From the IMG/VR virus record IMGVR_UViG_3300032214_000789, positions 1-64,000 of that record: a DNA stretch of 64,000 nucleotides. One strand, 5' to 3'. The notes beneath the pieces were generated by a model. It saw only the letters and a program-made list of their open reading frames with translations. It ran no database searches and was not told the origin of the DNA. This document shows positions 3,514 through 63,643 of the stretch, in pieces. Every line of letters begins with the position of its first letter. The stretch's first letter is position 1. The DNA is from a virus. The position numbers were made by a program, and so were the translations under genes.

Positions 3514-3649
3514 AGGGATCGTTGTCTGCAAGGTAATCATACAGTAGTTTAGCAAACCCGTATTGGGGTCTTGTGCCAGTTTCAATACTGGTCGATGTGG
3601 CAACCGTCCACATTATATCCAAATTAAGTTTATCAGGAAATTCCTTCAT
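3461..3649 (-). CDS. hypothetical protein, 62 aa
   Basis: Start chosen at the ATG at 3649 (MKEFPDKLNLDIMW) because GGGGA lies at good spacing upstream; an ATG at 3667 is also in frame. The 3' part overlaps the zinc-ribbon gene by about 50 nt in a different frame, and the internal promoter of that gene lies inside this ORF. No recognised domain. The overlap lowers confidence, but the start signal supports it. Confidence 0.55.
   Translation of the reverse strand: MKEFPDKLNLDIMWTVATSTSIETGTRPQYGFAKLLYDYLADNDPYGLCDDFKRKESTSKEA
3536..3541 (-). promoter_or_regulatory. TATGAT -10 element of an internal early promoter
   Basis: Minus-strand TATGAT with an exact AACTGGCACA element 30 nt upstream (3572-3581) but no good -35. 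A start near 3529 would leave a 16 nt leader to the ATG at 3513. The assignment rests on matching the spacing of three other promoters in this window. Confidence 0.45.
3572..3581 (-). promoter_or_regulatory. AACTGGCACA upstream promoter element, copy 2
   Basis: Exact copy of the 10-mer at 2099-2108, here inside the coding sequence of the 62 aa gene and 30 nt upstream of a TATGAT hexamer. Confidence 0.5.
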
Positions 3650-4136: not shown

Positions 4137-4610
4137 TTAAAAACTATACTCCAACCATTCTTGAATATTGGAATTGTCAAGAATGAATTGCATTTTATTA
4201 AATGGTGCTCTTGGTCGCTTTAACAATCGCATACCAGTGTGTTCTAGAAAGGAATTTCCTTTTCTGGTGTTACAAGGACTACATGCAACTACAAGATTTT
4301 CCCAACTATCATCACCACCACGACATCTTGGTACAACATGATCAATTGTTAAATTTCTTGTTGATCCACAGTATTGACAACTATTTTTATCTCTCTTGTA
4401 AATCATCGCTCTGGATGGTTTATGAGACATAATCTTTGAAAGAGGAACTTTTACGTAATCAAGAAGGCGAATTACCCTATCAGAAAGAACTTGTGCTTTT
4501 TCTTTAAGAAGTAAAACTATTGCTCTTTTCCAACTTGTGATGTTGAGTGGTTCGTAACTAGAATTTAATACTAAAACTGCTTTTCCAGGTTGAATTCTTA
4601 AGTAGTCCAT
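4137..4610 (-). CDS. HNH endonuclease
   Basis: A 157 aa HNH-family nuclease. The zinc-binding CxxC (C78-C81), the core DHVVPRCRGG (D90, H91), the downstream Asn of the ENL segment and a second CxxC (C110-C113, followed by N) give the layout of the stand-alone HNH family common in cyanobacteria and their phages, including the typical N-terminal segment VLVLNSSYEPLNITSWKRA. It should nick or cut DNA at a divalent-metal beta-beta-alpha site. No split target gene is evident, so a free-standing homing enzyme or a host-DNA-degrading role are both possible. Confidence 0.9.
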   Translation of the reverse strand: MDYLRIQPGKAVLVLNSSYEPLNITSWKRAIVLLLKEKAQVLSDRVIRLLDYVKVPLSKIMSHKPSRAMIYKRDKNSCQYCGSTRNLTIDHVVPRCRGGDDSWENLVVACSPCNTRKGNSFLEHTGMRLLKRPRAPFNKMQFILDNSNIQEWLEYSF

Positions 4611-5603: not shown

Positions 5604-6305
5604 TTATACCGTCATGTTCAAAGATACAATTATTCTACTCTTTTCATCTTGACTTGGAAGAGTATAGTGAAATATATTTGAAGGGAATACTATTAAAGAA
5701 CCCGAAGAAATGTTTTTTTCAACATATACTTCTTTACGATTATATTCCAAATTATTGAGAAATGGGCAAATAAATTCTGTAGGTGTATGTACTCTTTCAT
5801 CAAATTCTATAAAACAAACTGATCCTAAACTACTTGGTGCATTTCCATGTGTGTGGGGTGCATGAAACATTCCTTTTTTTTGTTCTTGAAACCATGCATA
5901 ATTAATTTCAGCCATTTTATTTGGAAAATTTTCAGGATTACCAAAACATTCATATATTATTTTTCTCTCTTCGTAAAAGATTTGATCTATAATATTTGCA
6001 AATTGTTTTTCCCATTCCTGTCTTTGTAAAATTTGCTCTTGACTTTTATTTTTTCTGTGCCTCTCAAGTTCATAAGTTGTAAAGACGCTATCTCTATTGA
6101 CTAACCATTCTTTACTTTCATCAAACAACTCTAATAATTTTTTCTTTTTAATTTCCCAATTTGACATTTTTATATGCAAAAGGGGGACAGAAAACATCGG
6201 TTTTATAATTATTTCTTTATTCAGATATTTTTCAGCAACTAAATTGCAAAAATTACTTTCATCATCAAGTAATTTTTTTTCTTTATCAAAATATACTTCT
6301 TTCAT
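5604..6305 (-). CDS. 2OG-Fe(II) oxygenase-like protein, 233 aa
   Basis: The C-terminal half has the pattern of phage 2-oxoglutarate/Fe(II) oxygenases: HAPHTHGN (H148, H151, H153), then a beta strand segment, SGSLIVFPSNIFHYTLP with H213, and R224 in KSRIIVSLN as the likely 2OG-binding Arg. Known enzymes of this fold hydroxylate proteins, nucleic acids or small molecules; the substrate here cannot be inferred. The N-terminal 140 residues are charged and helical. The gene is AT-rich compared with its neighbours. Confidence 0.65.
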   Translation of the reverse strand: MKEVYFDKEKKLLDDESNFCNLVAEKYLNKEIIIKPMFSVPLLHIKMSNWEIKKKKLLELFDESKEWLVNRDSVFTTYELERHRKNKSQEQILQRQEWEKQFANIIDQIFYEERKIIYECFGNPENFPNKMAEINYAWFQEQKKGMFHAPHTHGNAPSSLGSVCFIEFDERVHTPTEFICPFLNNLEYNRKEVYVEKNISSGSLIVFPSNIFHYTLPSQDEKSRIIVSLNMTV

Positions 6306-7374: not shown

Positions 7375-8601
7375 TCAGCGTCGAATAGTACTAACGGCAA
7401 CATCACCGTTTACAAAGATGGTGTCCACCACGTTCTGTACGGCACGTGCGGTGTTCGCAGATGCCTTGTCAAAGGTGGGGCAGATCACCAGTCCATAGGA
7501 TTTGGCATATGCCTCCAGATTGCCTGCCTGGAGGGCACCAGAGCGGATGTTAGCAGCATCCTGGGGGTGTAGGCGCAGAGTACGTCCAACCGTTTGTCCG
7601 ATGCCCACAACATCCATAGAACGCATGAACACAACTGCCTCCAGAGCAGAGATGTTGATGCCTTCTGCCAGAATGCTGTGATGCAGAACCACAAACTTCT
7701 TGTCGGCATCCTTGCCCCACTGGTTGAGAGTGTCGAAGAACACCTCACGGTTTACGATCTTACCATCAATAAAAGCACCGTGCTTGGAAGTAATGTGCAT
7801 CACAGAGTAACCCTGTTCTGCAAGTTGATCTGCAAAATTAGTTTCAGAAAGCAAACCCACAATGTTCTTGGTTGCCTTGGCACAGATCAGGATCTTGTTG
7901 ACGGGATGATCTGCGATCGTTTGCAGAAGATACTCACAATCACGTTGAGCAATATCCTCACCCTTGATGGAGAGGCGCATCTCCTTCATCATAACCTTGG
8001 GAGGAATAATGTAACCACCCTGCACAAGATCAGGAGCAGGAACCTTGGCAATGATCTGACCATAAACATCAGTATCGTTCATGCCAGGTTTGCCAACCAC
8101 AGAAGAATACTTGGGAGTTGCAGTAAAGAAATAGCAACGCTTTGCTTCTGAAGCAAAGTATTCTGTGGCAGGGAAGAAATTACGCTTGACAGAGTTGTGT
8201 GCCTCGTCAAAGTAAATGGTGTCCACGGCAATGCCTGCACGTTGCAGTTGCTGCAGAGAGTTGTAAGTGGTAAAGATCAGTTTGTGACCTTCCACTTGCT
8301 CACACCAGGTACGGATAATGTTAGGGCGAGTGCTGCGGAAGTGATGAGTTTCACCTGTATGAACGTGCATCACATGAGCATTGGTGATGAACTCAAGGTA
8401 CTCGGAAGACAGTTGCTCTGCCAAAAGAATGCGAGGAGCAACCACTACGATGGTTTGAGCAGTATCAGAAAGGAACTGCTCAATCGCATCAAAAATACCA
8501 ACGTTGGTTTTACCACCGCCAGTAGGGAAAACACAGATGCCCTTGGCAACCTGCCGAAGAGCATCAAGAGCAATTTGTTGATGGGGGCGAAGTTGGAACA
8601 A
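7375..8601 (-). CDS. superfamily 2 DNA helicase (ResIII/DEAH type)
   Basis: A 408 aa SF2 helicase with Q-motif-like LRPHQ (residues 4-8), Walker A PTGGGKT (26-32), DEAH (132-135), TATP (160-163) and motif VI QTVGRTLR (336-343). The core is complete, but there is no nuclease domain and none of the N-terminal extension of T4 UvsW, so I do not call it uvsW. The in-frame ATG at 8658 lies upstream of the -10 at 8624-8629, so I use the TTG at 8601 (16 nt leader, GGAG just upstream); an alternative start remains possible. About half of the bases are G or C, well above the surrounding genes. Its order suggests it works with the ParB-like and methyltransferase genes upstream. Confidence 0.85.
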   Translation of the reverse strand: MFQLRPHQQIALDALRQVAKGICVFPTGGGKTNVGIFDAIEQFLSDTAQTIVVVAPRILLAEQLSSEYLEFITNAHVMHVHTGETHHFRSTRPNIIRTWCEQVEGHKLIFTTYNSLQQLQRAGIAVDTIYFDEAHNSVKRNFFPATEYFASEAKRCYFFTATPKYSSVVGKPGMNDTDVYGQIIAKVPAPDLVQGGYIIPPKVMMKEMRLSIKGEDIAQRDCEYLLQTIADHPVNKILICAKATKNIVGLLSETNFADQLAEQGYSVMHITSKHGAFIDGKIVNREVFFDTLNQWGKDADKKFVVLHHSILAEGINISALEAVVFMRSMDVVGIGQTVGRTLRLHPQDAANIRSGALQAGNLEAYAKSYGLVICPTFDKASANTARAVQNVVDTIFVNGDVAVSTIRR

Positions 8602-8623
8602 GATCTCCGTTGCGTATGGGACT

Positions 8624-8629
8624 ATTATA
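8624..8629 (-). promoter_or_regulatory. TATAAT -10 of the helicase promoter
   Basis: Minus-strand TATAAT just downstream of a strong terminator hairpin. No convincing -35, but an exact AACTGGCACA element lies 28 nt upstream. Start about 8617. Confidence 0.6.
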
Positions 8630-8630
8630 G

Positions 8631-8656
8631 CAGAAAGGGGTCCCCGCAGGAACCCC
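8631..8656 (-). terminator. strong hairpin terminator after the ParB-like gene
   Basis: On the minus strand GGGGTTCC pairs with GGGACCCC around a TGCG loop (8656-8637), followed by TTTCTG. It separates the ParB-like gene from the helicase and sits inside the helicase promoter region. Confidence 0.7.
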
Positions 8657-8657
8657 A

Positions 8658-8667
8658 TGTGCCAGTT
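8658..8667 (-). promoter_or_regulatory. AACTGGCACA upstream promoter element, copy 3
   Basis: Exact 10-mer, 28 nt from the TATAAT of the helicase promoter and at about -41 to -50. Confidence 0.55.
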
Positions 8668-8681
8668 ATCAAATTGGTCTA

Positions 8682-9986
8682 TTATTGAAATTCGTTATGC
8701 TGTTCAATTAAGTTTGCTTGTGGCAACCACTTGAAATCAATTGGTTTCAAAGTTCCTTCATCATGTGCTTTGAGAACACGGCGATAGTGTTTGAGCATAC
8801 GCTTACGCTCACCTTCCATTAAAACTCGAAGTTCATCGATGTTGTTTTCTGTAGGAGGAGTACTAACTCCCTGACCCTGTTCCAGGAAGGAGTAAGCAGT
8901 ATAGTTATTATCAGGATACTCAAGTTGCTTTTCAAAAATGAAATACCACTTACGGTAGTGATCTGGTTTACGTCCCCAACCAACTGCAAAGGTAGTTTGA
9001 GTTTCGTTCATAGAACTAATACGCTCACCACAAACACCATTTATACCAAAAACATCTTTCAAGGTTTTTTGTGCTTTAGAAATATCATATGGTTCAATAG
9101 ATACTTTAACACCTTCTTCACCAAGAATTTCAGCAGCAAAAATCCTTCGATTGTTTTTGCGAACTTCTTTATAACGAGTTTTCAAAACGTCAATTACAAC
9201 TTCAATATCTTTTGCAATTTTTCCATATTGAAAACCTTTTTGAATCATGTACTTCACATCATGCTCTGTGCAATCATTCTTCTTTTCTCTGTTGGGGGCA
9301 TTAGCGATTGCACCGTATTGAAGAAGAGAATATTCATCCTCACCAAAAATGATAGCACATGGAAAATATTTCCAAGGCAATTCAAACCGATTGTTGCCGT
9401 CACGAACGATATACTTAAAAGTGAATTCGGAACCATCTTCATCAACATAATGAATTGGTTCGGGAAGAACCGATACCGCAGGTTGATAGCAGCGATAGTC
9501 ATACTCACCATCAGCAACTTCTTCCGTAATTTGGTCAATAGTTTGCTGGAAAAGTGCCTGCCCAACACGAGTTTGACATTCGATGCCAAGTTTTCGAGCA
9601 ACACTATGAGACATTACTTCATCTTTATGAAGAATTGCCCACTTTTCGAAGGTAATTCCAGGAGATTTCTCATAGTATCGCCCATGCTTCTCTAACTCTT
9701 CCAAATCAAAGATATTTTGATTTGGATTGATCGCCCCTTTTGTTTCAACAAGACAATATGTACCTTGCAGATCCATAGAATTTCGGCACATCATTTTTAA
9801 AAGTTCATCTGCTTCAAGACGCTGAATTGAAGCACGAACAATTTCTTCTTCATTCTTATTATCATATAGTTCTGGAATACGATTTTGTTTCAGAACCAGA
9901 TCATAAACTTGTTGAAGTGTGAAAATAACTCCAGGAACAAAGTTCTCTCGGAGAGTTATCAAAAGATGTTCTTTAGTAGAAATCAT
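8682..9986 (-). CDS. winged-helix plus ParB/Srx-like domain protein, 434 aa
   Basis: Start set at the ATG at 9986 (MISTKEHLL); the longer form would read through the promoter at 10009-10037. Residues about 5-80 resemble a winged-helix DNA-binding domain (FTLQQVYDLVL, then RASIQRLEADELL and LQGTYCLVE), similar in layout to the C-terminal winged helix of some restriction enzymes. Residues about 190-250 contain DGNNRFE (196-202), FPCAII (208-213) and NREKKNDCTEHDV, the pattern of the ParB/sulfiredoxin-like fold, whose members bind or hydrolyse nucleotides or cut DNA. The last 180 residues are unassigned. The gene has its own promoter and terminator between the methyltransferase and helicase genes. 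The domain call is by eye and moderately sure. Confidence 0.5.
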   Translation of the reverse strand: MISTKEHLLITLRENFVPGVIFTLQQVYDLVLKQNRIPELYDNKNEEEIVRASIQRLEADELLKMMCRNSMDLQGTYCLVETKGAINPNQNIFDLEELEKHGRYYEKSPGITFEKWAILHKDEVMSHSVARKLGIECQTRVGQALFQQTIDQITEEVADGEYDYRCYQPAVSVLPEPIHYVDEDGSEFTFKYIVRDGNNRFELPWKYFPCAIIFGEDEYSLLQYGAIANAPNREKKNDCTEHDVKYMIQKGFQYGKIAKDIEVVIDVLKTRYKEVRKNNRRIFAAEILGEEGVKVSIEPYDISKAQKTLKDVFGINGVCGERISSMNETQTTFAVGWGRKPDHYRKWYFIFEKQLEYPDNNYTAYSFLEQGQGVSTPPTENNIDELRVLMEGERKRMLKHYRRVLKAHDEGTLKPIDFKWLPQANLIEQHNEFQ

Positions 9987-10008
9987 AATCAAATTTGTTT
10001 GCCCAATC

Positions 10009-10037
10009 AATATAGAGCAGATCACCCACCCTGTCAA
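10009..10037 (-). promoter_or_regulatory. sigma70 promoter of the ParB-like gene
   Basis: Minus strand TTGACA (10037-10032), 17 nt, TATATT (10014-10009). Start about 10002, 16 nt before the ATG at 9986. TAATGGGACA at 10052-10043 matches AACTGGCACA at 7 of 10 bases with the same 28 nt gap to the -10. Confidence 0.8.
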
Positions 10038-10049
10038 CCCCCTGTCCCA

Positions 10050-10451
10050 TTAGAAAAACTTTTCAATACCGATAAGTTCTCCAAATGAGTAGTCATACTC
10101 CAAAGCATCAGCACACACATAATGAGGATGATCTGTTGATACACCTAGACGCTCACAAATCTCCTTATGATTATCTTCCATCATTTCTACGGCATAGAGC
10201 ATGTGATCTAGAACGTGCTTTTCATCATGATATTGACACAAACGTTTCTTTAATCCCACTAGAAAATTCCCAGATCCTGCAGAATTATCAATAAACGTGC
10301 TTGTAGGATCTTGAAGTAATTCCAAAGGAATTTCATCAATCATGCTTTCTACGAGTTCTTGTGGAGTAAAGACTTCTTGGGTCTCTTTAATTCTTTCATC
10401 GGATCTTTCAATACTTGATCCAACTTCTAGATTATGCTTGTTCTTTTTCAT
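10050..10451 (-). CDS. DNA adenine methyltransferase, AdoMet-binding half (split)
   Basis: A 133 aa ORF with the N-terminal half of a gamma-type/Eco57I-like N6-adenine methyltransferase: motif X region QEVFTPQELVESMIDE (T29-P30) and motif I FIDNSAGSGNFLVGL (D55, G59-G61, N62, F63), the AdoMet pocket. It lacks the catalytic NPPY motif, which is in the ORF transcribed just before it; the two overlap by 20 nt and are probably coupled. Together they would make one enzyme of about 326 aa with the halves in the reverse of the usual order. Confidence 0.7.
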   Translation of the reverse strand: MKKNKHNLEVGSSIERSDERIKETQEVFTPQELVESMIDEIPLELLQDPTSTFIDNSAGSGNFLVGLKKRLCQYHDEKHVLDHMLYAVEMMEDNHKEICERLGVSTDHPHYVCADALEYDYSFGELIGIEKFF

Positions 10452-11013
10452 TTAAACATTTAATATAAGTTGAAATTAGATCATTCTTTCCGAAATGATA
10501 TCGTCCATTACACTGTGTTGCTGCCTCTCTAAATTTATCAGCAAACTCTACCATATTTTTTATTACGCTGGGATCTTTCACTTTTAGAAAATGATGTCCC
10601 TTTGCATAATGTGTGAAGTTTTCTGTTTTAACTCTACCACTGGGTCCACATCCATACTCACCAACAAATAGATCTGCTTCATCTCTTCTTTCATATGGAA
10701 GAAACTCAAAGTCAGGATGTTCTCTCATCATAGGAATTTCACCAACTCCTATTGCAAATCTTGTAGTGTTTCTAACTTCCCAATATTGCTTAACAGCACT
10801 AATACCACCAGGAAATGTAGATGCATCAAGATCTTCATCTACTACACAGTGAAGATGTCCTTTAATCTTATTTAAAGAAGAAGGTTTGCGTACCGAAGTT
10901 GGTAACACAAACCTTATGTCATCTGCAATCTCTGCAGTCTTATTCAGGAATTTTATAGCAAGATTACCACCTACACCATATGGAGGATTACCAATAGCTA
11001 AGCTAAATCTCAT
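10432..11013 (-). CDS. DNA adenine methyltransferase, catalytic/target-recognition half (split)
   Basis: A 193 aa ORF with the catalytic motif IV IGNPPYG at its very N-terminus (N9-P10-P11-Y12), followed by the strand/helix pattern of Eco57I-like methylases (IRFVLPTSVRKPSSLNKI) and a C-terminal region that could recognise the target. Motifs X and I are absent here and lie in the downstream ORF. NPPY enzymes transfer a methyl group from AdoMet to the N6 of adenine. First gene of the transcript from the promoter at 11040-11068, with a 20 nt leader. Confidence 0.7.
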   Translation of the reverse strand: MRFSLAIGNPPYGVGGNLAIKFLNKTAEIADDIRFVLPTSVRKPSSLNKIKGHLHCVVDEDLDASTFPGGISAVKQYWEVRNTTRFAIGVGEIPMMREHPDFEFLPYERRDEADLFVGEYGCGPSGRVKTENFTHYAKGHHFLKVKDPSVIKNMVEFADKFREAATQCNGRYHFGKNDLISTYIKCLNEKEQA

Positions 11014-11039: not shown

Positions 11040-11068
11040 ATTCTAGTGGGATTTGGAGATTATGTCAA
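11040..11068 (-). promoter_or_regulatory. sigma70-like promoter of the methyltransferase pair
   Basis: Minus strand TTGACA (11068-11063), 17 nt, TAGAAT (11045-11040). It lies 4 nt past the stop of the 1661 aa fibre gene and directs transcription into the split methyltransferase. Confidence 0.7.
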
Positions 11069-25236: not shown

Positions 25237-25246
25237 TGTGCCAGTT
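25237..25246 (-). promoter_or_regulatory. AACTGGCACA upstream promoter element, copy 4
   Basis: Exact 10-mer immediately after the TGA stop of the LamG-like gene, 30 nt upstream of the TATAAT. Confidence 0.55.
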
Positions 25247-59771: not shown

Positions 59772-60596
59772 TTAAACTCCATCCTCATGCCAACATTCAT
59801 TATATCCATATTTTTGATCTTCATACGGATAGGCACTTAAATTTTTCTTTGGCCATCTTAAATTAATATTTGTTTTTGGAAAAGATTTAAATAATTTTTT
59901 TGTAATGTTATTACTCACTTCTAAAGATTCATACCAATTAGATGATCCATCGAAAAGATATTTTTCAGGTTGAATAAGAAAAATTTTAATTCTTTCGTCA
60001 AAATTTGAACAGTAATTAGCACCAATGTATGTTTCAGTTCTAATAAAATATCCATAATATTTCCAGAGATCTTGTTTGGATATTCTTACTCTATCAATAA
60101 CGTTGTTAACTTTAAGAGGTATATCGAAAAGTTTAATTAAATCAACTCTTTTACCCCAGAACACATGATCTCTGGGATGGAACAAAAGATGTGGGTACAT
60201 ACCCGGAACAAATATAAGATGTTCTTTTCTATTTTCAATAAAAAAGTTATACATAACCAACATACTATTGTAATCATATAATTGGTCTGTACGCATTTTT
60301 ATAGAATATTCCGTATCAGATTTAATTATCCCATTATATGATCCAACTATTTGGAGATTAACATTATCATCCCCAAAATTATTTGGTTTTTTATTTGTCA
60401 ATACAATTATTCTATTGGAATATTTTTGTTTTATTGATTCCAAAGAAGAAATGTCATCATCTTCCCAGCACGATAAAATTATATTATTTACAAATGGTAA
60501 TTGAAAATAATTTTCTATTATTTCGCTAGTGAATACATCATACTGTCCTTGCAGAACAATGTCAAGCTTTTCAAATAAATTGTTGTTCTGCATCAA
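59772..60596 (-). CDS. WavE-like lipopolysaccharide/glycan synthesis protein, 274 aa
   Basis: Features of the WavE family: LDIVLQGQYDVFTSEIIENY, NNIILSCWEDDD, SDTEYSIKMRTDQLYDY and FVPGMYPH, with HPRDHVFWGKRVDLIKLF following. WavE proteins act in LPS core or capsule synthesis, probably as glycosyltransferases; the K-M-R-x-D-Q motif is the expected donor-binding site. It overlaps the large glycosyltransferase gene by 4 nt, so the two likely work together. A phage gene of this kind could modify the host surface or glycosylate virion fibres. Confidence 0.75.
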   Translation of the reverse strand: MMQNNNLFEKLDIVLQGQYDVFTSEIIENYFQLPFVNNIILSCWEDDDISSLESIKQKYSNRIIVLTNKKPNNFGDDNVNLQIVGSYNGIIKSDTEYSIKMRTDQLYDYNSMLVMYNFFIENRKEHLIFVPGMYPHLLFHPRDHVFWGKRVDLIKLFDIPLKVNNVIDRVRISKQDLWKYYGYFIRTETYIGANYCSNFDERIKIFLIQPEKYLFDGSSNWYESLEVSNNITKKLFKSFPKTNINLRWPKKNLSAYPYEDQKYGYNECWHEDGV

Positions 60597-63500
60597 TTCT
60601 TTTTTTCAATATGAATATTGTATTGCTTTAAATTATCAACTACGACATTATAGTACTCCGTTGATACTTCAGGATCATTAGAAAGTTCTAAAAGAATATT
60701 TTTAGACTCTTCATTTTTTCCCCAATACCATCCCGACAATGCCTTCTCAAAAGAAAGACCATATTTTCCAGGATATTCAACATCGGATGTTGTTGGTTGA
60801 CTAGAAAAATCACCAATACTCAATCCTAAACATGAGTACTTATAGCAATCATGCCACTGCTGTCTTCTTTCATGAAATCTAGCGAGAAGAAAATATGCTT
60901 CAGGTCTACTTGGTTTAAGGCATAAAGCTTGTTGAAGAAGAGAAATTGCAGTTCCATCTCTTGTTCCTTGTTTGTCATAACAGTGATGACATTTAATTAA
61001 TGATTCATATTGCATATCTTCATCTTCAAATCTTTCCGCAGATCTTAAAAAGTAAGATAGAGCTGGTGCAGTATGCCCTTCTTTTTCATACCACAGTCCT
61101 ACGTTGTAATTTCTTTGGGGATCTTCCGGATCTAAAGAATATTCAGTAAGAAGGTTTTCTAATTCAGTTTTACCTCTACTAGTATTAACAGGTTCTTGAA
61201 TTATAATTTGTGGTTTAGAATAAAAAGAACAAATTTCAGAAAGTTTCAAATGTGAATTATTTTTCCACCAATCAATTACATGATCATAAGTCTCTTTATG
61301 ATATTCTTTGTTTGGATTTTGAAGTTCAGTTTCTCCATAAAAAGTTGATGTTTGATTTTGATCCTCAACAAAAAGATTAACTGCGTAAACTTTTCCAAGA
61401 TCATAAAACAAAACATTTTCTGGCATAGGATAAAAATTTGTTCCAGGGATTTCTAATCTATAAGAATCGCCATCACAATAACGATCAATAATTTTTTTGG
61501 CATAATCTCTAGTCAAAATATAAGCGGTTACAGACCAATCATACATCGATCTTTCACGCATCTTAATCTCTTCATAATTTGTTGTTATGCAGCACAATTG
61601 AACACACTCCGCATCCTCTGGAAGAGAATCTATAAAATCACTCCAAGTAAAGTTCCAGTACTGAACAGTTTCCAAACTTAAATCATCTTCACAGAAAAAA
61701 CCATAATCTTCATCAGTTTCCTCATACCATTTTTTAATCATTTTGATATGAGAAACTACACATCCGATAGTCCCTTCATCAAGAACATGAAGTTGTTCCC
61801 CATACACTTTATCATCACAATATTTAAATCTTCTAGAGAGAACTTCTCTAAAGTTTTCAACTCCACTATAGAAAAATTGAAATCTTAATGAATCTCTTCT
61901 ATCAACACTTTCATCCAAACTAATGTAGTTTACGCTAGGAAAATCTAAAAGTTTAACTCTATTTGTAAGAATTTTATTTGCACTTAATTTAAAACTCATT
62001 TCTTTCCACCAATTAATTACTTTGCTATATGATGCGTAATGAGCATCATTGAGATCATTTGATTCATAAGAAGACTTAAATGAAACATCTTCTACAAAAA
62101 GAGGAAATGTATAAACTCTGTTTGTTAGACTAAACAAAACAGTTTCAACTACAGGAACTAAAGCCCAATCTTCTCTACCATGACCATCATGACACTTTGA
62201 ATCCAAATAAAAATTATCATCATAATGATATGTATCTATTAATTTTTGAGCATATTCTCTTCTAATTAAATATGCACATGCAGACCAATCTCCCCAACAC
62301 CTATTTTTAAATTCAAGAATATTATGATATTGTTCAGAACCTTCTCCTTGTATTATGCACAATTGAATGCAGTCCCATTTTGATGGGAGAATATTCACAA
62401 ATTCTTGCCACGTAAAGTTCCAGTACTGAACAGTTTCTAAACTTAAATCATCTTCACAGAAAAATGCATATTCATCATTTGATTGTATTAACCATTCTTT
62501 GAGTGCTTTTAGATGTGATGTAACAGGTCCTCTACTACCTTGACTTAATTTATCTTCTCCATTAACTTCTAAATAATTGCTAATTATTGTATGATCTTCA
62601 CTATTATATTTTTGAAATATATGAGGAGTTATATTTTCTACAGTAAATGGTTTAAATTTTTCATATAAACTTTTTCTTCTTTCTTCAGAATGTTCAGTAC
62701 TTACAAAATGAACTGGTGGAAAATTTTTTAATTTTGAATAAGTTTCTTCAAGTTTAGCTTCATAAAATCCTTTTGATTTTTCTACCACTACCCAATTTAA
62801 ATCTGATCTATTTTCCACATAATAATTTGTTAGATTTTCTGTCATCTTAGAATTTATTTCATTATGTCTTAACGTTAAAACATAATCAGTTTGCCATTCT
62901 AATTCTTCACCAGAATATCTCGAAGATAAACTATAGTAAATTTCTTCTCTAAGATTTTTATCAGAATCAAAAGATTTAAAATTTTCAAACCTTTTTACAT
63001 CTGGATGTGGTATATGAAAAATATGATAATCAAAATCTAACTTTTTATGTTCTAATCCAAGTAACTCTAATCTTTTATAGATTTCATCATCTTCAAAAGA
63101 ATAATATTCACAAAAATTTTCATTATATCCACCGACTTTTAAAAGGTTATCCTTTTTAATATAAAGAAGACCCGTCAAAAATTTATAATATGAACTATAA
63201 GTATTGAAATAATCATTCAATTCATCCATAGACATATTTTCTTTGCTGACCAAAATCTGTCCACTTCCTTCATCATAATATTCTGGACTTTTTAAACTTG
63301 GTTTTCCACTAACAAATGAATTATCATCTACTTTATACTTATCGAAAAAACAATAATAAGGACTCATCACATAATCACAATCAACTTTCAGAATATATTC
63401 GCCAGTTGCTTGGGATATTGCAAGATTAAGAGGTTGTGGTTGATTAAAATATTTTTGATTAGGTACTCTAATAATTTTTATTCTTTCATCCAAATTAACT

Positions 63501-63643
63501 AGATGTTCTAAAGATTGATCAGAACTCCAATCAATTATAATAAACTCATTAATTTGTTTATAATTTAACCAAGAATTCAGAGAAACATTCAAAGCTTCGT
63601 TGCGATTCTTGCAAGCACATATTAAAGAAATATTATTTTCCAT
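60593..63643 (-). CDS. multidomain glycosyltransferase: GT2 - GT25 - GT25 - TPR, 1016 aa
   Basis: Residues 1-260 are a GT2-type (GT-A) domain: ISLICACKNR, IIIDWSSDQS, VDCDYVM (D88-D90) and SFEDDEIYKRL (184-190). About 310-540 and 570-790 are two GT25 (LPS/procollagen-type) domains, each beginning VHFVSTEHSEERR or VNYISLDESVDRR and containing FFCEDDLSLETVQYWNFTW (about 393-411 and 648-666). From about 850 TPR-like helices follow (RNYNVGLWYEKEGHTAPALS, RPEAYFLLARFHERRQ). Both GT25 copies keep the EDD motif. It probably adds several sugars to one acceptor; the TPR may hold it. Confidence 0.82.
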   Translation of the reverse strand: MENNISLICACKNRNEALNVSLNSWLNYKQINEFIIIDWSSDQSLEHLVNLDERIKIIRVPNQKYFNQPQPLNLAISQATGEYILKVDCDYVMSPYYCFFDKYKVDDNSFVSGKPSLKSPEYYDEGSGQILVSKENMSMDELNDYFNTYSSYYKFLTGLLYIKKDNLLKVGGYNENFCEYYSFEDDEIYKRLELLGLEHKKLDFDYHIFHIPHPDVKRFENFKSFDSDKNLREEIYYSLSSRYSGEELEWQTDYVLTLRHNEINSKMTENLTNYYVENRSDLNWVVVEKSKGFYEAKLEETYSKLKNFPPVHFVSTEHSEERRKSLYEKFKPFTVENITPHIFQKYNSEDHTIISNYLEVNGEDKLSQGSRGPVTSHLKALKEWLIQSNDEYAFFCEDDLSLETVQYWNFTWQEFVNILPSKWDCIQLCIIQGEGSEQYHNILEFKNRCWGDWSACAYLIRREYAQKLIDTYHYDDNFYLDSKCHDGHGREDWALVPVVETVLFSLTNRVYTFPLFVEDVSFKSSYESNDLNDAHYASYSKVINWWKEMSFKLSANKILTNRVKLLDFPSVNYISLDESVDRRDSLRFQFFYSGVENFREVLSRRFKYCDDKVYGEQLHVLDEGTIGCVVSHIKMIKKWYEETDEDYGFFCEDDLSLETVQYWNFTWSDFIDSLPEDAECVQLCCITTNYEEIKMRERSMYDWSVTAYILTRDYAKKIIDRYCDGDSYRLEIPGTNFYPMPENVLFYDLGKVYAVNLFVEDQNQTSTFYGETELQNPNKEYHKETYDHVIDWWKNNSHLKLSEICSFYSKPQIIIQEPVNTSRGKTELENLLTEYSLDPEDPQRNYNVGLWYEKEGHTAPALSYFLRSAERFEDEDMQYESLIKCHHCYDKQGTRDGTAISLLQQALCLKPSRPEAYFLLARFHERRQQWHDCYKYSCLGLSIGDFSSQPTTSDVEYPGKYGLSFEKALSGWYWGKNEESKNILLELSNDPEVSTEYYNVVVDNLKQYNIHIEKKN
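61647..61698 (-). repeat. near-identical 52 bp repeat in GT25 domain 2
   Basis: Matches 62412-62463 with one visible mismatch, while the rest of the two GT25 domains has diverged. Confidence 0.85.
62412..62463 (-). repeat. near-identical 52 bp repeat in GT25 domain 1
   Basis: Partner of 61647-61698, coding for the catalytic EDDLSLETVQYWNF segment. Confidence 0.85.

What the first reader, a model, noticed from the sequence alone, without database searches (positions are those of the whole stretch)
7375..11013. Four-gene DNA-targeting locus: split methyltransferase, wHTH/ParB-like protein and SF2 helicase
Seen: in transcription order, an NPPY ORF, an AdoMet-binding ORF, a protein with a winged-helix-like N-terminus plus a DGNNR ParB-like motif, and a complete ResIII-type helicase lacking a nuclease. 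Each unit has its own early promoter and two of them share the AACTGGCACA element or a variant. Known: methyltransferase plus ResIII helicase plus DNA-binding/nuclease folds are the parts of restriction and anti-phage systems. Inferred: it may be a phage-borne modification, interference or host-DNA takeover system of a kind I do not recognise.
Basis: partly seen in the sequence, partly recalled or inferred. Interest (0 to 1): 0.75.

Follow-up and report, generated by a model that had tools for sequence, protein, structure and literature searches.

The report
Cyanophage DNA-methylation cassette with swappable partner
A marine cyanobacterial virus carries a two-piece DNA-adenine methylase next to an interchangeable DNA-binding (ParB-fold) gene, in a slot where relatives swap one such gene for another as a cassette; this looks like an arms-race modification module, and the neighbouring helicase is an ordinary core phage gene.

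Summary
The four ORFs are real and under purifying selection (dN/dS 0.05-0.19), but they are not one fixed four-gene system. P0004 (NPPY) and P0003 (AdoMet motif) are the two halves of one N6-adenine methyltransferase, encoded in permuted order in overlapping genes; Aeromonas phage Aeh1 has both halves in one protein in that same order. The helicase is a common cyanomyovirus gene (hits in 450 phage records), here with its own promoter behind a terminator. The 434 aa protein belongs to a divergent ParB/sulfiredoxin-fold group with a DpnI-like winged helix. Its position is an exchange slot: among 91 metagenomic phage loci with the methylase beside the helicase, the slot is empty in 27, holds a gene matching a ParB-like profile in 59, and something else in 5. 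The swap seams are the slot promoter and an AACTGGCACA-hairpin-promoter element resembling the PeSL shuffling elements known from T4-like phages; phages 93-94% identical on both sides carry unrelated slot genes. ParB-like genes upstream of this helicase are strongly associated with methylases in the window's clade. I read it as a modular phage DNA-modification cassette with an exchangeable NTP-switch/DNA-reader partner. What the partner does is inferred, not shown.

The parts
11040..11068 (-). promoter of the methylase pair, TTGACA-17-TAGAAT
   Evidence: 11 of 12 consensus match; DNA homology with L014-L016 starts exactly here
10432..11013 (-). P0004, catalytic half of the N6-adenine MTase (NPPY at 10989-10978); C-terminal ~100 aa is a repeatable, TRD-like unit (inference)
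   Evidence: phrog_5172 E 7e-65; PADLOC MTase_II E 9e-9 to positions 80-163 of a 269-long profile; [G/I]NPP[Y/F] found in 85 of 93 relatives scanned; tandem duplicate of the C-terminal part in ACG-2014f
10050..10451 (-). P0003, AdoMet-binding half of the MTase (FTP = motif X; DNSAGSGNF at 10289-10263 = motif I); overlaps P0004 by 20 bp
   Evidence: phrog_4376 E 1e-73; Pfam N6_Mtase above cutoff; FTP in 99 of 99 and the motif I pattern in 97 of 99 relatives
10009..10037 (-). slot promoter TTGACA-17-TATATT; left seam of the swappable cassette
   Evidence: 11 of 12 match; homology to L014, L015 and L016 ends at 10008 or 10007
8682..9986 (-). P0002, 434 aa ParB/Srx-like slot protein with N-terminal winged helix
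   Evidence: phrog_33124 E 3e-31; profile-profile match to the NGNHR slot family E 5.5e-7, well above 60 shuffles
9741..9938 (-). winged helix of P0002 (residues 17-82), related to the C-terminal wHTH of other slot proteins and to the DpnI C-terminal HTH
   Evidence: Pfam DpnI_C in a slot homologue at E 9e-4, below the curated cutoff
9387..9401 (-). DGNNR, the GxxR P-motif of the ParB-CTPase fold
   Evidence: G197 and R200 invariant in the 5-member family alignment; motif-aligned to NGNHR
8624..8667 (-). right seam: AACTGGCACA (8667-8658), terminator hairpin (8656-8637), TATAAT (8629-8624) driving the helicase
   Evidence: homology resumes at 8677 in L014/L015 and at 8664 in the empty-slot locus L029
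7375..8601 (-). core cyanomyovirus SF2 helicase (408 aa from TTG 8601; ORF open to 8658); neighbour, not a diagnostic part
   Evidence: 450 phage records; ResIII E 1e-17; own promoter

Best explanation
It is a modular phage DNA-adenine-modification cassette inserted between tail-fibre genes and a core helicase gene. P0004 and P0003 fold together as one N6-adenine methyltransferase (catalytic half first, AdoMet half second) and mark phage DNA. P0002 is a ParB/sulfiredoxin-fold, NTP-binding DNA-associated protein with a DpnI-type winged helix. It is most likely the module's reader/effector: it engages DNA according to its sequence or methylation state and uses NTP binding through GxxR as a switch, to protect or regulate the phage's own DNA or to act on unmarked host or competitor DNA. 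Shown here: the two halves, their permuted order, the slot, the seams, and the family-level ParB fold. Inferred: heterodimer formation, m6A as product, NTP binding, and the role of the slot protein.
For: Split MTase: catalytic and AdoMet motifs lie in separate, overlapping, co-conserved genes. Aeh1p090 carries the AdoMet half at its C-terminus (E 1e-14) and an NPPY half at its N-terminus (hhalign score 36.6 against at most 26.5 for 40 shuffles). ParB fold: the AF2 model of slot homologue L052 (pLDDT 82.8) matches pNOB8 ParB-N, ParB and Noc in the PDB (best E 8.8e-4) and, in BFVD, cyanophage ParB/Srx proteins including a 370 aa protein of ACG-2014e (E 3e-10), the phage and length of a P0002 homologue. 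P0002's family aligns to it with the motif in register (shuffles never approach). Reader domain: the wHTH profile's best non-repetitive PDB hit is DpnI (E 9e-4); Foldseek also lists DpnI. Slot. P0002 of L009 is 94% identical (dS 0.17) while the adjacent P0003 has dS 2.6, so the slot gene moves on its own. Same company elsewhere: ACG-2014i, AG-345-F15 and ACG-2014b put a candidate or annotated nuclease, a ParB-like protein and a methylase side by side.
Against: The AF2 model of P0002 itself failed (pLDDT 48), so its fold rests on homology to the modelled family. The slot is empty in 27 of 91 loci, so the methylase can do without the partner; ParB-like genes also occur before the helicase without a methylase. 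In the ACG-2014b-like helicase clade the association was not significant (p 0.11). The wHTH is absent from many slot proteins, so reading of m6A cannot be the general function. The sampled loci are related, so Fisher p-values overstate independence.
Confidence: 0.45

Rival explanations
1. Hot-spot only: methylase and ParB-like genes are separate accessory genes that PeSL-type recombination drops at the same place; they have no joint function.
For: Promoter-terminator seams exactly at the swap boundaries; slot empty in 27 of 91; ParB-like genes before the helicase without methylase in S-T4, S-H9-1, L104, L157; the ACGb clade shows many methylases without a recognised ParB-like neighbour.
Against: Occupied slots next to the split methylase match a ParB-like profile in 59 of 64 cases, from several profile groups not all linked to each other by sequence, whereas MTase-less loci of the same clade carry tail-fibre or other genes there and only 2 of 45 have a ParB-like gene. 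The same pairing with other methylase types occurs in ACG-2014b, ACG-2014i, AG-345-F15 and L113.
Confidence: 0.22
2. Phage-borne restriction-modification: the ParB-like protein is (part of) the nuclease that cuts unmodified host or rival DNA, as chloroviruses do with their own R-M enzymes.
For: Relatives sit between a nuclease-like gene and a methylase (ACG-2014i, AG-345-F15); ParB/Srx-fold nucleases such as GmrS and Osa are known (own knowledge); PADLOC lists the wHTH of a homologue as methyl-directed REase at E 0.0096.
Against: Where a separate nuclease candidate exists the ParB-like protein is there too, so it is not simply the missing nuclease; no nuclease motif was found; no nuclease domain in the window locus.
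Confidence: 0.15
3. Transcriptional regulator: the slot protein is a repressor or timing switch of the modification cassette, like DndB (a ParB-fold, ATP-dependent repressor of the dnd operon) or C proteins of R-M systems.
For: wHTH plus NTP-type fold; DndB precedent (PMC12704722); separate promoter for the slot gene.
Against: A regulator would be expected to co-evolve with a fixed promoter, but the slot gene is swapped while the methylase promoter stays nearly identical; many slot proteins lack the wHTH.
Confidence: 0.13
4. Four-gene helicase-dependent restriction or interference system, functionally like BREX, DISARM or Type I/ISP.
For: Helicase adjacent in most loci fetched with the AdoMet half; a helicase-NPPY protein or separate helicase and NPPY proteins partner the same AdoMet half in MA01 and ACG-2014f.
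Against: The helicase is a core gene with its own promoter behind a terminator and is present without the cassette in most carriers; in ACG-2014f, S-SKS1 and S-CAM7 the pair lies away from it.
Confidence: 0.05

Closest known systems
Amino-methyltransferases of N6_Mtase/Eco57I type (PADLOC MTase_II)
   Same: motifs X, I and IV; profile matches of both halves
   Different: two overlapping genes in permuted order (IV-bearing half first); Aeh1p090 is the fused form; rv5_gp096 is the contiguous X-I-IV form
ParB-CTPase/sulfiredoxin fold proteins of phages, often fused to N6/N4 methylases (PNAS 2025, PMC12704722)
   Same: fold of the slot family, GxxR P-motif, association with DNA methylases
   Different: free-standing, exchangeable in a fixed slot, with or without a DpnI-type wHTH at either end; beside a split methylase
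PeSLs, composite promoter-terminator motifs for modular shuffling in T4-like myoviruses (Arbiol 2010; Comeau 2014; cited in PMC4503421)
   Same: terminator hairpin plus promoter at swap boundaries
   Different: here they bracket one functional type of gene, which is replaced like for like
DpnI / Dam-replacing HTH (PF17726)
   Same: weak but repeated match of the wHTH
   Different: no DpnI nuclease domain
Hypervariable region with N6A-methylase, helicase and 2OG-Fe(II) oxygenase in cyanophages (Sullivan 2010, PMC3037559)
   Same: a listed region of cyanophage genomes that holds an N6A-methylase and a helicase
   Different: the table line read here names no slot, split methylase or ParB-like gene

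Membership tests
N6-adenine DNA methyltransferase | motif IV (D/N/S)PP(Y/F/W) | tested here: met
   NPPY in P0004; [G/I]NPP[Y/F] found in 85 of 93 relatives
N6-adenine DNA methyltransferase | motif I and X AdoMet pocket | tested here: met
   P0003 DNSAGSGNF and FTP; Pfam N6_Mtase 21.2 bits over cutoff 20.4
N6-adenine DNA methyltransferase | both parts in one polypeptide | tested here: not met
   split here; fused in Aeh1p090
N6-adenine DNA methyltransferase | methylation of adenine in DNA | not testable with these tools
   needs PacBio/nanopore or an enzyme assay
ParB-CTPase/Srx fold | fold | tested here: inconclusive
   met for slot family member L052; for P0002 itself by profile homology only, its own model failed
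ParB-CTPase/Srx fold | GxxR P-motif | tested here: met
   DGNNR; G197 and R200 invariant in the family alignment
ParB-CTPase/Srx fold | NTP binding | not testable with these tools
   requires a DRaCALA-type assay as in PMC12704722
Canonical ParB partition protein | ParA partner | not tested
   no ParA was seen among the annotated neighbours examined, but it was not searched for systematically
Type II/IIG restriction-modification | endonuclease in the locus | tested here: not met
   none found for the four proteins in Pfam, PHROGs, NCBIfam or PADLOC; an HNH gene lies 3 kb away, not linked
BREX / DISARM / Dnd | signature genes (PglX-size MTase, PglZ, DrmA/B, DndBCDE) | tested here: not met
   the four proteins give only short partial hits far below the cutoffs; signature genes not searched one by one
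PeSL element | terminator stem-loop plus promoter at shuffling boundaries | tested here: met
   8667-8624 and breakpoints; the original papers are not in the library

The most novel reading that the evidence does not exclude
Probability: 0.18. Interest if true: 0.8.

Novelty: new variant of a known kind. Interest (0 to 1): 0.55.

Why it matters
Cyanophages carry many methylases whose purpose is unknown. This locus gives a clean natural experiment: near-identical phages that differ mainly in the slot gene beside the same methylase (e.g. window against L014/L015, or the empty slot of L029), so the role of phage ParB-like proteins in DNA modification becomes directly testable. The split, permuted methylase is also a natural two-part enzyme with free halves, and its AdoMet half is found beside different catalytic partners.

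Tried and rejected
Obligate four-gene system: rejected by the helicase survey. P0002 structure by AF2: too shallow an alignment, pLDDT 48, not used. Alignment-based collection scans with broad ParB-like families: not conserved enough to run. Sequence-only PDB searches with P0003, P0004 and the slot family: nothing usable. Split AdoMet half in bacterial or archaeal genomes: no relative found in one scan for close relatives. phrog_2615 (slot of L048/L050/L054) and the 365-379 aa families were first suspected ParB-like from 'DSNTR', 'TNGHTR' and 'DANSR' motifs; profile comparison of the latter with the slot family failed, so none of these were counted. P0002 as HsdS-like specificity subunit: less likely, because the C-terminal half of P0004 is duplicated in a relative as a TRD-like unit and 27 loci lack a slot gene.

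Full report
WHAT IS THERE. On the minus strand, in transcription order: P0004 (11013-10432), P0003 (10451-10050), P0002 (9986-8682) and the helicase (ORF 8658-7375). The record is a 69,326 bp virus contig from IMG/VR. Its best phage DNA match over a 12 kb structural stretch is Synechococcus phage S-SKS1, weak; P0003 and P0004 match P-SSM2/P-SSM5 best (80%).

THE METHYLASE. P0003 matches N6_Mtase and the AdoMet parts of several MTase_II models; P0004 matches positions 80-163 of a 269-long MTase_II model, i.e. the part after the AdoMet motif. The genes overlap by 20 bp and occur together, in this order, in most loci fetched with P0003. The order is the reverse of the contiguous relative in Escherichia phage V5 (rv5_gp096, X-I-IV). 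Aeromonas phage Aeh1 encodes one 415 aa protein with NPPY near its N-terminus and the AdoMet half at residues 285-369, which supports the view that the two cyanophage genes make one enzyme. Scanned relatives show the NPPY-type motif in 85 of 93 and the AdoMet motif in 97 of 99; dN/dS is 0.05-0.19 for all four window genes where it could be estimated. In ACG-2014f the C-terminal ~100 residues of the NPPY protein are tandemly duplicated, which suggests a target-recognition unit (inference). The AdoMet half also stands beside larger proteins: a 1074 aa ResIII+Eco57I-type protein in MA01, separate helicase and NPPY proteins in ACG-2014f and a 459 aa NPPY protein in S-SKS1.

THE HELICASE. tblastn finds it in 450 phage records, mostly Synechococcus and Prochlorococcus phages. 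In this locus it lies behind a terminator hairpin and its own TATAAT; the true start is probably TTG 8601. In loci without the methylase it commonly follows tail-fibre-like or other genes. I treat it as a neighbour.

THE SLOT. In 91 IMG/VR loci with the AdoMet half upstream of this helicase within 3 kb, the gene between them matches a ParB-like profile in 59, is absent in 27 and is something else in 5. The ParB-like profiles fall into groups: the P0002 and NGNHR families are related (hhalign E 5.5e-7; 60 shuffles give at best 0.068), the NGEHR family is related to the NGNHR family (E 2.2e-6), the S-T4 family merges with NGNHR (E 1.7e-50), and the L067 and L073 families are linked only by motif, by a ParB PHROG hit (L067, E 5.5e-5) or by weak profile scores (L073, E 4e-4 after profile expansion). 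Unrelated controls score Prob 0.3 or less. AF2 of a well-populated member (L052) gives pLDDT 82.8 and Foldseek returns ParB-N, ParB, Noc and PadC in the PDB and a series of cyanophage ParB/sulfiredoxin proteins. P0002's own model failed, so its fold is by homology.

THE WINGED HELIX. It is N-terminal in P0002 and AG-345-F15 and C-terminal in P-SSM2_038, L052 and L071. Its profile finds DpnI in the PDB at E 9e-4; the higher-listed 'Cake' hits are repeats of a 16-residue fragment with no single significant stretch. Pfam DpnI_C appears below cutoff in three homologues. DpnI needs methylated adenine (own knowledge), so a reader of the neighbouring methylase's mark is an attractive but unproven idea; many slot proteins lack the domain.

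THE SEAMS. Window and L014/L015 are 94% identical from 11068 to 10008 (methylase promoter through slot promoter) and 93% from 8677 on (AACTGGCACA, hairpin, helicase promoter), with unrelated slot genes between; L016 and L017 behave alike on the left; L029 joins the P0003 stop directly to the hairpin, a clean empty slot. In L009 the P0002 gene is nearly the window's (dS 0.17) beside a P0003 with dS 2.6. Among pairs of loci whose P0003 is at least 95% (but not 100%) identical, 13 of 42 carry different slot families. AACTGGCACA is enriched in the window, and ACTGGCACA is about 17-fold over a simple composition estimate in all fetched loci (those loci overlap and are related). A hairpin follows at 8667 and 2108, and by the same search at 3581. 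This matches the published notion of PeSLs (cited in PMC4503421; the original papers are not held).

ASSOCIATION. Helicase-anchored loci with at least 3 kb upstream: window clade 9 with both, 2 ParB-like only, 2 methylase only, 43 neither (p 3.7e-7); S-T4 clade 3/2/3/42 (p 0.009); ACG-2014b clade 9/3/26/32 (p 0.11). Loci are not independent. Other pairings: ACG-2014b Dam-like methylase + PD-(D/E)XK-like gene (by eye) + ParB-like + helicase; ACG-2014i annotated 'restriction endonuclease II' + P0002 homologue + methylase; AG-345-F15 PD-(D/E)XK-like gene (by eye) + P0002 homologue + methylase; L113 Dam-like + ParB-like + helicase. Without methylase: S-T4 gp029, S-H9-1 gp039.

READING. A modification cassette with an exchangeable ParB-fold partner is the best fit. 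The partner is unlikely to be simply the missing nuclease, because nuclease candidates co-occur with it elsewhere. Its like-for-like exchange argues for a function under diversifying pressure. Literature: ParB-CTPase folds in phages are often fused to DNA methylases and bind several NTPs through GxxR (PMC12704722); a cyanophage hypervariable region with N6A-methylase and helicase was listed in PMC3037559. I found no description of the split methylase or of the slot in the papers searched, but the library holds open-licence papers only.

Noticed in passing
window 2108-2060 (-) and 8667-8620 (-): AACTGGCACA followed by a GC hairpin, a T-run and TATAAT; a weaker hairpin also follows the copy at 3581; at 25246 it precedes TTGACA-17-TATAAT. 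Candidate PeSL-type shuffling seams of this phage.
   Followed up: partly
L007:5440-6453: ACG-2014f NPPY protein has a tandem duplication of its C-terminal ~98 residues, suggesting a repeatable target-recognition unit.
   Followed up: partly
L090:8550-10008: Slot holds a 206 aa protein with no family match (restriction-enzyme-like by context only) plus a DNA methylase instead of a ParB-like gene.
   Followed up: no
L008:1028-4252 and L046:5113-7269: Large proteins with an N-terminal region of unknown fold plus SF2 helicase (and NPPY methylase in MA01) next to the free AdoMet half: looks like a split Type IIG/ISP-like enzyme.
   Followed up: partly
L168:2095-2529: 144 aa PD-(D/E)XK-like protein (by eye; no family hit) between a Dam-like methylase and a ParB-like gene in ACG-2014b.
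   Followed up: no
L314-L321, L327-L342, L048/L050/L054: A further family set (365-379 aa, and phrog_2615) with DANSR, TNGHTR or DSNTR motifs directly before the helicase, often after a methylase; also beside psbA in S-RIM8. Possibly an additional divergent ParB-like group.
   Followed up: partly
window 4137-4610 (-), 5604-6305 (-): HNH endonuclease and 2OG-Fe(II) oxygenase downstream of the helicase.
   Followed up: no
window 59772-63643 (-): WavE-like protein and a 1016 aa multi-glycosyltransferase protein.
   Followed up: no
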